53,451 nucleotides of DNA from Calothrix membranacea FACHB-236 (GTDB lineage: Bacteria > Cyanobacteriota > Cyanobacteriia > Cyanobacteriales > Nostocaceae), in contig NZ_JACJPX010000057.1 of NCBI RefSeq assembly GCF_014696315.1, positions 1 to 53,451 of the forward strand, written 5' to 3'. Within the stretch, counting starts at the first letter, position 1; each line of letters opens with the position of its first letter. Below, piece by piece: positions 20,078 through 22,288 of this stretch. Below the pieces are notes generated by a model. That model had not been told where the DNA came from, did no database searches, and was given only the letters and a program-made list of their open reading frames with translations. The translations under genes and the position numbers were made by a program.

Positions 20078-22288
20078 TCACCCTGTCTCTGAATCGCCCA
20101 ATTGACAAGTCTCAAGACGCAAAAACAGAGCCACACATAATTCCCACCACGAAGCTGTTGCGATCGCACTATGCCATTCCCAAACACCTAACAGCTTGAC
20201 ACGCCAAACCTGTTCTAAAAAACCGAAATAGGGTAAATGTCCTATAGGTGCATCTCCTTGCCAGACTAGATTTTCATAATCAACCCATGAGTCTTTCAAA
20301 CGCCAACCAACACGATTAGCAAAATCAATGCAGGTTTCGGAAGCAGCAACTTTGGCAGAGCCAATCATCAAAGCTAACAACGGATCGGTTGCAGAAGTAT
20401 CTTTAATACTTTGCCAGATAAGTTGTTGAACACTAAAGCCAAAGTGCCCATAACTATAATTTACCCACAGATTATCAATTGTATAAAGGTCTTTACAAGA
20501 AAAATTTATTACATCCTTAATTTCAAGAAAACTTTCTTCTTTTCTTCCGGATGCTTTGAGTATAAGTTTTGTAGTCTCTTGATCCGCCTCTAACCACCTT
20601 TTATTTTTAAGTAAATCTCGCAAGTAAGTGTAATCAATTCCTAATGCTGAACTCAAATCATCAGGTTTGAAATTGTCAGTATTTTCTGGTTTGGTATGTA
20701 AATTTTCAACAGAAAATAAAGTTTTTCCTGGTAATATTTCTATAATTCCTTGAGAACCAGATAACCAAAAATATAATTTAATGTCAGTTTGTGTTAACTG
20801 CATTTGCAATTGTGTAATCCAAGCTGCGGCGGTGAGTCCTGTTGGCTGCATTCCTTGATTGAGGGTTTCTAGCAAAGTATGAGCAAATACTTCACTATCA
20901 TTAGCTGGTACAGCAGCCGTAATTAAACACTGTCCTGCATCTAATCCAATTTGTAGTTCTTCTACCCAATCCCTTACTGATACTGTCCCAAACCCCTGCT
21001 GTTCTGGACAATCTAAAATAATAATTTGTTGCGATCTACATCGGCGGAGTTGTTTTCTTAACCATGAACGCTCAATAAAAATATCTTCGGACAGTACTAA
21101 TCTTGCTTCTCCTACTTCTGTCTCGCAAATTTGCCCACGCAGATATAACAATACTGTTGTGGCTGCTTCGGGTGTAGTAGATTCCGCAAAAGATGGCGAT
21201 AGCAAACACTTTTGGATAGCTTTGCGTACATCCGACTGGGGATTTTTGCCCCGCACAGTCCAATAATTAACTTCAAAGCTTCGCGTATTGCTGAGTATTT
21301 TACTCAAATCCAAGGAATGTTTACTTTTGGGGAGTCCTTCTACTATTAATGCTTGTCGCGGATGTTGGGAAAATGGTATTTGCTGAGGTTTTAGTCCTAA
21401 AATTACTTCTCCTACTCCTTCGACAATGCGCTTGGGTGTTTGTGAAGGATATTCGGAATGTATGGAATTGTCTCCCCGTCCTTTTTTTAGCTGATTAATG
21501 ACTCGCAACTGCTGATTAGCTTTATCTATATATGTCAGTGTTTGGTGGTAAACATAGCGATAAAGTCCATCGGCTTCGATAACACCAACAGAGTCAGCAG
21601 CTTCTCCCCTTAGCCCTTGAATTAAATAATATGTAAATACACCATGCCCTAATTGCGGAAATTCCCAAGATTGCTGGCCGCGATCGCAAGATAATAAAGC
21701 ATAAAATCCTTTTCTTTGGGCAGCTCGTTTTCGCAAAACTTCTACCAACTCTGGTGTCGGGTTGAGTTGGGGATCTGTTTCGCCTCTTGCACCCAACAGC
21801 GTCATTCCTCCGCTATGACAAGCATCTAATATTATTAGTTGCTGTTGAGCAGAACAATTTTCTAACAGTTGCAACAATTCCTGCAACTTTAAACCCGTGT
21901 CAGTTAATTGTTCTTTTTGAGTATCTTGGAGACACAGCACTACCTGCTGACTTAAAGAGTCCAGCATCCCATGCCCAGAAAAATAAAATATAACTGTGTC
22001 GATAGGTTTACTAGCCGCTGCAATTTGTTGAAGACTGGCGCGGATATTTTCTAATTTGGGTTGCTGTTCCCCAAAATCGTGATAAATCATCACCTCTTTT
22101 TGCGGAAATCCCTGTGTTGCGGCGTTTAATGCTTCCCCCAACCCTTGACAATCCAAAGCCGAATAATGCAAACCAGGTATTTGCTCATCCTCGTATTGGT
22201 TGACTCCCACTAGTAATAGCCAAAGTTTTGCTACACCAGTTTCTAAAGCATGAGTTGAGTGGCTAGTACGAACCCCAACAGGACACAT
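20078..22288 (-). CDS. Metacaspase / degenerate caspase-like / GUN4 fusion
   Basis: A 736-aa three-part protein. Residues about 21-245 are a caspase-fold peptidase (C14, metacaspase/orthocaspase): KLWLLLVGVNQYEDEQIPGL, the catalytic His106 in FYFSGHG and Cys157 in LIILDACHSGG. Residues about 310-530 repeat the fold's outline (ALIVEGLPKSKHSLDL, TTVLLYLRGQ, IIILDCPEQQG), but the His position holds Gln386 and the Cys (427) sits next to Asp426 without the usual Ala-Cys-His, so this unit is probably inactive. Residues about 552-690 are a GUN4 domain (LLKNKRWLEADQETTKLI, FGFSVQQLIW, FANRVGWRLKDSWVDY, APIGHLPY). GUN4 binds protoporphyrin and Mg-protoporphyrin. A tetrapyrrole-controlled protease is a reasonable but untested reading. 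No neighbour explains it. Confidence 0.9.
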   Translation of the reverse strand: MCPVGVRTSHSTHALETGVAKLWLLLVGVNQYEDEQIPGLHYSALDCQGLGEALNAATQGFPQKEVMIYHDFGEQQPKLENIRASLQQIAAASKPIDTVIFYFSGHGMLDSLSQQVVLCLQDTQKEQLTDTGLKLQELLQLLENCSAQQQLIILDACHSGGMTLLGARGETDPQLNPTPELVEVLRKRAAQRKGFYALLSCDRGQQSWEFPQLGHGVFTYYLIQGLRGEAADSVGVIEADGLYRYVYHQTLTYIDKANQQLRVINQLKKGRGDNSIHSEYPSQTPKRIVEGVGEVILGLKPQQIPFSQHPRQALIVEGLPKSKHSLDLSKILSNTRSFEVNYWTVRGKNPQSDVRKAIQKCLLSPSFAESTTPEAATTVLLYLRGQICETEVGEARLVLSEDIFIERSWLRKQLRRCRSQQIIILDCPEQQGFGTVSVRDWVEELQIGLDAGQCLITAAVPANDSEVFAHTLLETLNQGMQPTGLTAAAWITQLQMQLTQTDIKLYFWLSGSQGIIEILPGKTLFSVENLHTKPENTDNFKPDDLSSALGIDYTYLRDLLKNKRWLEADQETTKLILKASGRKEESFLEIKDVINFSCKDLYTIDNLWVNYSYGHFGFSVQQLIWQSIKDTSATDPLLALMIGSAKVAASETCIDFANRVGWRLKDSWVDYENLVWQGDAPIGHLPYFGFLEQVWRVKLLGVWEWHSAIATASWWELCVALFLRLETCQLGDSETG

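What the first reader, a model, noticed from the sequence alone, without database searches (positions are those of the whole stretch)
20078..22288. One protein joins a live-looking metacaspase, a degenerate second caspase unit and a GUN4 tetrapyrrole sensor
Seen: His106/Cys157 are intact in the first unit. A second unit keeps the strand pattern (LLYLRGQ, IIILDC) but lacks the catalytic His (Gln386). A full GUN4 core follows at about 552-690. Known: GUN4 binds (Mg-)protoporphyrin IX; metacaspases are Cys proteases linked to stress and cell death. Inference: the GUN4 part could switch proteolysis on photosensitising tetrapyrroles, with the pseudocaspase as scaffold or inhibitor. That would tie pigment stress to regulated proteolysis or lysis in a cyanobacterium.
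Basis: partly seen in the sequence, partly recalled or inferred. Interest (0 to 1): 0.78.

Follow-up and report, generated by a model that had tools for sequence, protein, structure and literature searches.

The report
Protease–pseudoprotease module with swappable sensors
This cyanobacterial protein joins a working-looking caspase-type protease to a dead caspase copy and a pigment-protein-like domain; the protease and its dead twin form a conserved unit that different cyanobacteria couple to different C-terminal domains, which suggests a built-in relay.

Summary
On the minus strand, residues 24-231 are a caspase with His106/Cys157 (dyad kept in 77 of 77 aligned rows). Residues 303-521 fold as a second caspase (pTM 0.83; all 30 PDB matches at E<=0.001 are caspase-type) without either catalytic residue (His position His in 3 of 79, Cys position Cys in 0 of 79). 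Residues 547-698 are GUN4.

The dead caspase is not a GUN4 accessory: 43 of 46 clade caspase matches carry it, and of 79 loci 61 have an nSTAND1-like part, 16 GUN4, 2 neither. The GUN4 form is one clade. Its GUN4 lost the LxNxLR bilin-binding motif (Asn to Gly in 17 of 17, Arg to Glu in 15), so tetrapyrrole sensing is doubtful but not excluded. Caspase-GUN4 fusions, and GUN4 as allosteric regulator of such enzymes, were already published.

Best reading: the pseudocaspase relays signals from exchangeable C-terminal sensors to the protease, as in Csx29 or FLIP(L). Architecture well supported; mechanism inferred. New variant of a known kind.

The parts
20081..22288 (-). whole coding region, 736 aa (stop codon 20078-20080 not included); N-terminal MCPVGVRTS stretch, recurrent in relatives
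21419..22231 (-). unit 1: caspase/orthocaspase domain, residues 20-290, catalytic dyad intact
   Evidence: Pfam PF00656 E=6.6e-19 at 24-231; dyad 77 of 77
21971..21973 (-). catalytic His106 codon (FSGHG)
   Evidence: 77 of 77 rows
21818..21820 (-). catalytic Cys157 codon (DACHSG)
   Evidence: 77 of 77 rows
20726..21382 (-). unit 2: conserved pseudocaspase, residues 303-521
   Evidence: AF2 model and Foldseek, hhalign, NCBIfam on 66 of 79, 79-row alignment
21131..21133 (-). Gln386, at the position of the catalytic His (YLRG-Q)
   Evidence: alignment of units; variable across the family
21005..21007 (-). Pro428, at the position of the catalytic Cys (LDC-P)
   Evidence: alignment of units; 0 of 79 have Cys here
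20195..20650 (-). GUN4 domain, residues 547-698 (paralogue type)
   Evidence: Pfam PF05419 E=3.3e-38; own-genome search
20213..20230 (-). YFGFLE (687-692) in place of the LxNxLR bilin-binding motif
   Evidence: alignment to 1y6i; Gly689 17 of 17, Glu692 15 of 17
20114..20194 (-). Trp-rich C-terminal tail, residues 699-725 (GVWEWHSAIATASWW), strongly conserved in the GUN4 form and outside the Pfam GUN4 match
   Evidence: dN/dS

Best explanation
The protein is one member of a cyanobacterial protease family built on a two-part module: an active-looking orthocaspase followed by a tandem pseudocaspase. The C-terminus is exchangeable: an nSTAND1-type NTPase (with WD40 repeats in the three full proteins scanned), GUN4, or a part without a named domain. 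Shown by computation: the two caspase folds, loss of both catalytic positions in the second, conservation and near-constant pairing of the two units, and exchange of the C-terminus with a single GUN4 clade in the sample. Inferred: the pseudocaspase is the transmission element. It packs against the protease, holds it in a set state, and relays a conformational or oligomeric change from whichever sensor is attached, comparable to the pseudo-caspase CHAT1 and active CHAT2 of Csx29, or to FLIP(L) and caspase-8. In the GUN4 form the input is whatever this divergent GUN4 binds: possibly a porphyrin with altered affinity, probably not a bilin, or a protein partner. Output is inferred, from the family, to be limited proteolysis after a basic residue, not necessarily cell death.
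For: Fold and homology of the middle unit. Dyad conserved in unit 1 and lost in unit 2, with other residues fixed in unit 2 (Tyr382, Arg384, Asp426 each 79 of 79; Cys427 75 of 79). Module integrity: in one draw of 386 genomes, 43 of 46 scored clade caspase matches have a middle-unit match beside them (compared by hand). Exchange: 61 nSTAND1-like, 16 GUN4, 2 neither, none both, of 79 loci; PF20703 nSTAND1 and WD40 in 3 of 3 long proteins scanned. GUN4 form is one side of a branch, 17 of 77 rows, support 100/100. Purifying selection on the pseudocaspase, dN/dS 0.14-0.38 in 16 pairwise comparisons. Analogy: Csx29 with pseudo-caspase and active caspase and allosteric activation (PMC10028731, passages); FLIP(L), where His is replaced by Arg, the commonest residue at that position here (PMC7586951, passages).
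Against: No contact or PAE information was available, so the packing of the two units is unknown; there are no activity data. The full-length model is mediocre (pLDDT 71.0, pTM 0.60) and poor over 627-711 in GUN4. Homology of unit 2 to caspases is remote: no Pfam caspase match among the 25 families listed for A2, none in PDB sequences, moderate TM-scores. Three of 46 clade caspases lack a detectable middle unit, so the protease can exist without it; three of the 43 are weak, split or interrupted (G111, G091, G334). A purely structural or dimerisation role would give the same pattern. The 79 loci were picked by one peptide pattern (WLSGxQG[VI][IM]E) and capped at the best 80 of 93, so that stretch is conserved in them by construction.
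Confidence: 0.5

Rival explanations
1. Tetrapyrrole switch, as the first reader and Kaur et al. 2020 suggest: GUN4 binds a tetrapyrrole and this directly turns the protease on or off.
For: Clear GUN4 homology; GUN4 recurs with caspases, a kinase, a NACHT and an AAA_35-TPR part in this genome; Asn-to-Gly in Chlamydomonas GUN4 spared porphyrin binding (PMC10156173, section 7); proposal in PMC7159879 (passages).
Against: LxNxLR lost in 17 of 17 aligned proteins, Asn to Gly in all and Arg to Glu in 15. An Arg-to-Glu mutant of Arabidopsis GUN4 (R211E), which I equate with this position from recall, bound porphyrins 5- and 12-fold more weakly (PMC8967248, passages). Of this genome's 13 GUN4 matches only the protein on contig C91 shows the motif; in C84 the loop was not located (by pattern and eye).
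Confidence: 0.25
2. The C-terminal domain is the cargo, not the sensor: the caspase cleaves itself or a sister chain to release GUN4 or the nSTAND1 part as effector.
For: Autoproteolytic effector release is proposed for EACC1 caspase systems (PMC7159879, passages), and attached signalling domains as caspase targets in PMC2853523 (passages). Residues 523-539, between pseudocaspase and GUN4, have pLDDT under 50.
Against: No conserved cleavage site was looked for in that linker. That nSTAND1-WD40 and GUN4 are more usual as regulators than as toxins is general knowledge, not tested.
Confidence: 0.2
3. The pseudocaspase is only a structural or dimerisation scaffold, without a signalling role.
For: Caspase folds often dimerise (general knowledge); the unit is present with three kinds of C-terminus.
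Against: Residues fixed at the former active site (YLRG, LDC) and purifying selection suggest more, but do not exclude it.
Confidence: 0.25
4. The middle unit is a decaying duplicate with no function.
For: Both catalytic positions are gone; it evolves faster than unit 1; one relative (G334) has it broken between frames.
Against: dN/dS 0.14-0.38 in 16 comparisons, residues fixed in 79 of 79, present in 43 of 46 scored clade members.
Confidence: 0.03

Closest known systems
Cyanobacterial caspase-GUN4 proteins (orthocaspases with GUN4; PMC2853523, PMC8283722, passages)
   Same: Caspase N-terminal, GUN4 C-terminal; 29 of 473 surveyed orthocaspases carry GUN4.
   Different: Four other caspase-GUN4 proteins of this genome (frames of 512-579 aa) have no match to the pseudocaspase profile. 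The second caspase unit is not mentioned in the passages read.
Csx29 / TPR-CHAT (and, by its resemblance, separase)
   Same: Active and inactive caspase folds in one chain with an attached regulatory part (PMC10028731, passages).
   Different: There the inactive unit (CHAT1) is listed before the active one (CHAT2); here it follows. Here no TPR family was found in the protein by Pfam and the first unit is of C14 type.
FLIP(L) and caspase-8
   Same: Pseudocaspase with the catalytic His replaced by Arg (commonest here too) and the Cys lost, partnering an active caspase (PMC7586951, passages).
   Different: Separate chains; here one chain. The window's copy has Gln, not Arg, and its Cys position is mostly Pro, not Tyr.
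EACC1-caspase two-gene systems (PMC7159879, passages)
   Same: Caspase at the N-terminus with variable C-terminal domains; P0001 and most middle units score against NCBIfam NF047832.
   Different: P0001 falls just under that model's cut-off (138.2 against 140 bits); the four neighbours scanned are ExoD, DAGK/YegS, a sugar transferase and DUF2459, and no neighbour recurs in more than 7 of 17 GUN4-form loci.

Membership tests
Caspase family C14 / orthocaspase (unit 1) | C14 fold by profile | tested here: met
   PF00656 E=6.6e-19, 69 bits against cut-off 21.4
Caspase family C14 / orthocaspase (unit 1) | His-Cys catalytic dyad | tested here: met
   His106, Cys157; 77 of 77 rows of A4
Caspase family C14 / orthocaspase (unit 1) | proteolytic activity, basic P1 preference | not testable with these tools
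   inferred from family; Ser200, Cys201, Asp202, Gln205 and Ser207 fixed in 77 of 77, their role in an S1 pocket is recalled
Pseudocaspase (unit 2) | caspase fold | tested here: met
   all 30 PDB matches with E<=1e-3 are caspase-type; hhalign E=2.5e-5 to unit 1
Pseudocaspase (unit 2) | catalytic residues absent, across the family | tested here: met
   His position His in 3 of 79, Cys position Cys in 0 of 79
GUN4 domain family | PF05419 match above cut-off | tested here: met
   131.4 bits against 29.2
GUN4 orthologue (Mg-chelatase cofactor) | LxNxLR bilin-binding motif | tested here: not met
   YFGFLE by alignment to 1y6i; Asn replaced by Gly in 17 of 17
GUN4 domain family | porphyrin binding | not testable with these tools
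   needs a binding assay; Arg replaced by Glu in 15 of 17 suggests weaker binding
EACC1-caspase system | adjacent 5' EACC1 gene with a single TM helix | tested here: not met
   5' neighbour is ExoD by Pfam; no model of EACC1 itself was run; neighbourhood not conserved
Csx29/separase tandem | inactive caspase fold before the active one, with helical repeats | tested here: not met
   order reversed; no repeat family in P0001 by Pfam

The most novel reading that the evidence does not exclude
An undescribed family of single-chain regulated proteases in cyanobacteria in which a covalently linked pseudocaspase is the general adaptor between an orthocaspase and interchangeable sensors (an apoptosome-like nSTAND1-WD40 part, a GUN4 paralogue, others). 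It would be a bacterial, one-chain counterpart of the FLIP-caspase-8 or Csx29 relay.
Probability: 0.4. Interest if true: 0.72.

Novelty: new variant of a known kind. Interest (0 to 1): 0.5.

Why it matters
Hundreds of cyanobacterial orthocaspases are catalogued (473 in PMC8283722), but the passages read here do not say how the multidomain ones are switched. A conserved, built-in pseudocaspase between protease and sensor is a specific, testable regulatory part, and comparing the GUN4 and nSTAND1 forms would separate sensor from relay. It also warns that 'GUN4 domain' in a multidomain protein should not be read as 'tetrapyrrole sensor' without a binding test, because these paralogues have lost the known bilin-binding residues.

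Tried and rejected
Rejected: some other Rossmann-like fold for the middle unit. Pfam gave only scattered weak hits on A2 members (e.g. ATP_bind_1 in 7 of 79, best E=4.3e-4), while the fold search and NCBIfam point to caspase. Rejected: decay of the middle unit. Rejected: a conserved operon; the most widespread neighbour, the downstream sugar transferase, is in 7 of 17 loci, and some loci have short flanks. PADLOC: unit 1 matches its 'caspase' model (E=9.8e-20), and the GUN4 end matches PD-T4-6 (E=2.2e-38) over positions 297-448 of 450 only; I do not take this as evidence of phage defence. A weak middle-unit match in G372 (E=5.6e-4) was set aside: no frame of the fetched stretch matched the profile at E<0.1. 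A PDB sequence search with the middle-unit profile found nothing. The full-length model's fold search lists 50 of 141 matches at E<=0.001: caspase, paracaspase and metacaspase entries and an unnamed Geobacter protein (3bij), no GUN4 structure among them. A GUN4 tree of 18 rows had only two well-supported branches and is not used.

Rows dropped or chosen before counts: L136 (cut, no caspase part) left out of A2 and A4; L135 (cut at its N-terminal side) and L085 also not in A4; L058 (fragment) left out of A1; A5 uses 18 chosen first units. Genome-search loci are in A1 only, not in A2-A5. Rows of A3 and A4 other than the window run from stop to stop, so some carry residues before the real start. 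One search scored at most 6 candidates per genome, so its 46 matches are a lower bound; pairing them was done by hand from the two tables.

Full report
OBSERVATION. The window 20078-22288 encodes one 736-residue protein on the minus strand. Pfam finds Peptidase_C14 at 24-231 and GUN4 at 547-698, and no family between them.

THE MIDDLE UNIT IS A PSEUDOCASPASE. A 79-row alignment (A2) gave an AlphaFold2 model with mean pLDDT 81.4 and pTM 0.83. Foldseek against the PDB returned 30 matches at E<=0.001, all caspases, plant or yeast metacaspases or the MALT1 paracaspase; TM-scores on the query are moderate, 0.45-0.59, and the next ranks are other clan CD relatives such as a C11 protease, legumain and Raptor. 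Profile-profile comparison with 18 first units (A5) gave E=2.5e-5 (probability 75 per cent, 74 columns) and pairs Gln386 with His106, Asp426 with Asp155 and Pro428 with Cys157. NCBIfam's caspase model NF047832 matches 66 of 79 middle units at E<=0.1, best 3.2e-6; the window's copy scores 16.7 bits against a cut-off of 140. Against this, no caspase family is among the Pfam families listed for A2 and a profile search of PDB sequences finds nothing: the homology is remote. The His position is His in only 3 of 79 (Arg 43, Gln 16, Lys 7, Glu 5, Thr 2, Ile 2, Ser 1) and the Cys position is never Cys (Pro 64 of 79). Other residues are fixed: Tyr382, Arg384 and Asp426 in 79 of 79, Cys427 in 75 of 79. 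The unit is under purifying selection: dN/dS 0.14-0.38 in 16 comparisons of the window gene with its orthologues, against 0.04-0.12 for unit 1 and 0.15-0.27 for GUN4. These are pairwise Nei-Gojobori values with some synonymous distances above 1, so only their order of magnitude is meant.

IT BELONGS TO THE PROTEASE, NOT TO GUN4. In an even draw of 386 cyanobacterial genomes the middle unit has a match in 32, one of which (G372) was not confirmed. In a search of 386 genomes drawn the same way, caspases of this clade (E<=1e-40; at most 6 candidates scored per genome) gave 46 matches in 32 genomes. Comparing the two tables by hand, 43 of 46 have a middle-unit match beside them, counting one weak (G111), one in two pieces (G091) and one interrupted (G334). 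The three without (G185:C8, G289:C17, G060) show no match to the middle-unit profile at E<0.1 in the fetched DNA; the first two run into long Gln/Glu-rich repeats and, by eye, WD40-like repeats. A scan of the genome collection with one peptide pattern returned the best 80 of 93 confirmed stretches, 79 distinct loci; two of them are cut on the N-terminal side (L135, L136). Of the 79, 61 carry an nSTAND1-like region, 16 a GUN4, 2 neither, none both. Pfam on three of the long ones gives nSTAND1 (PF20703) and WD40 in each. Six shorter proteins with another C-terminus (L049, L054, L055, L057, L075, L109) were scanned: five give the caspase domain and nothing beyond it, L055 gives no family at all at E<=0.01 although it aligns through the middle unit. 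The tree of the two-unit module puts the 17 GUN4 proteins, window included, on one side of a branch with 100/100 support: in this sample GUN4 was attached to this module once, in Nostocales. Eight of eight genomes of the window's genus have the middle unit in a 736-745 aa frame.

GUN4. The genome has 13 GUN4 matches and 21 C14 matches. Five GUN4 domains lie in caspase proteins; four of these (frames of 512-579 aa) give no match to the middle-unit profile even at E<=10. Others are joined to a protein kinase, a NACHT and an AAA_35-TPR part. Rockwell and Lagarias (PMC10156173; outline, passages and section 7 seen) define LxNxLR as a bilin-binding motif and find that the paralogue clade has lost its Asn. 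By alignment to 1y6i, whose numbering fits theirs (L209, N211, L213, R214), the window protein reads YFGFLE. Gly replaces Asn in 17 of 17 and Glu replaces Arg in 15 of 17 aligned proteins, with one Ala and one Asp. In this genome only the protein on contig C91 shows the motif (LSNQLR); in the window protein and ten others it is absent by pattern and eye, and in the C84 protein the loop was not found. The same paper reports that N219G in Chlamydomonas GUN4 loses bilin but keeps porphyrin, so porphyrin binding is not excluded. In Arabidopsis, R211E raised the Kd 5-fold for protoporphyrin and 12.2-fold for Mg-protoporphyrin (PMC8967248, passages); that R211 equals Synechocystis R214 is my recollection. 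Trp192 of Synechocystis, named there for porphyrin binding, aligns with Tyr671, which is Tyr in 17 of 17. The 27 residues after the Pfam GUN4 match (699-725) form a Trp-rich tail, strongly conserved in the GUN4 form.

MECHANISM. Shown: two tandem caspase folds, the first with an intact dyad, the second without, and interchangeable C-termini. Inferred: the pseudocaspase, which lies between protease and C-terminal part in each form seen, is the relay. In Csx29 (PMC10028731, passages) an inactive caspase fold contacts the RNA-sensing complex and the active one is repositioned allosterically. In FLIP(L) (PMC7586951, passages) a pseudocaspase with His replaced by Arg partners caspase-8. The order of the units is reversed relative to Csx29. 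No inter-domain confidence was available, and the full-length model is moderate (pLDDT 71.0, pTM 0.60) and unreliable over 627-711, so I make no claim about packing. The 50 PDB matches listed for it (of 141 at E<=0.001) are caspase-type entries and one unnamed Geobacter protein, with no GUN4 structure among them.

PRIOR ART. Caspase-GUN4 proteins: PMC2853523, PMC8283722 (29 of 473), PMC5756287 (MaOC3 and MaOC5 of Microcystis). GUN4 as a tetrapyrrole-dependent allosteric regulator and sensor of photosynthetic state: PMC7159879. These were seen as passages. I found no description of the tandem pseudocaspase; the searches behind that statement are (pseudocaspase with cyanobacteria, 0 papers; listings) and the term searches inside PMC7159879 ('inactive caspase' 0 times) and PMC8195603 (once, about cFLIP). 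The library holds open-access papers only, so this is a limited negative.

VERDICT. Confirmed observation. The stronger finding is the protease-pseudoprotease module with swappable C-terminal parts.

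Noticed in passing
L150 (G185:C8) and L151 (G289:C17): Two clade caspases lack a detectable pseudocaspase and instead run into long Gln/Glu-rich repeats and, by eye, WD40-like repeats.
   Followed up: partly
L049, L054, L055, L057, L075, L109: A further C-terminal class of the module (720-881 aa) has no Pfam domain after the pseudocaspase; several end in a similar 'GPIA'-type stretch seen by eye.
   Followed up: partly
window:20114-20194 (-): Trp-rich tail GVWEWHSAIATASWW after GUN4 is strongly conserved in the GUN4 form; role unknown.
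   Followed up: partly
L143-L146 (own genome contigs C143, C90, C80, C2): Four more caspase-GUN4 proteins in the same genome, without the pseudocaspase.
   Followed up: partly
L156 (G334): A relative with the caspase in a 352-aa frame and the middle unit split between frames: an interrupted copy.
   Followed up: no
window:22654-24317 (-): ExoD-family and diacylglycerol/YegS-type kinase genes upstream on the same strand; found in only two of the 16 other GUN4-form loci compared, some of which have short flanks.
   Followed up: partly
L139 (own genome contig C57): A NACHT-GUN4 frame and a solo GUN4 frame lie about 5 kb apart on the same strand of one contig.
   Followed up: no
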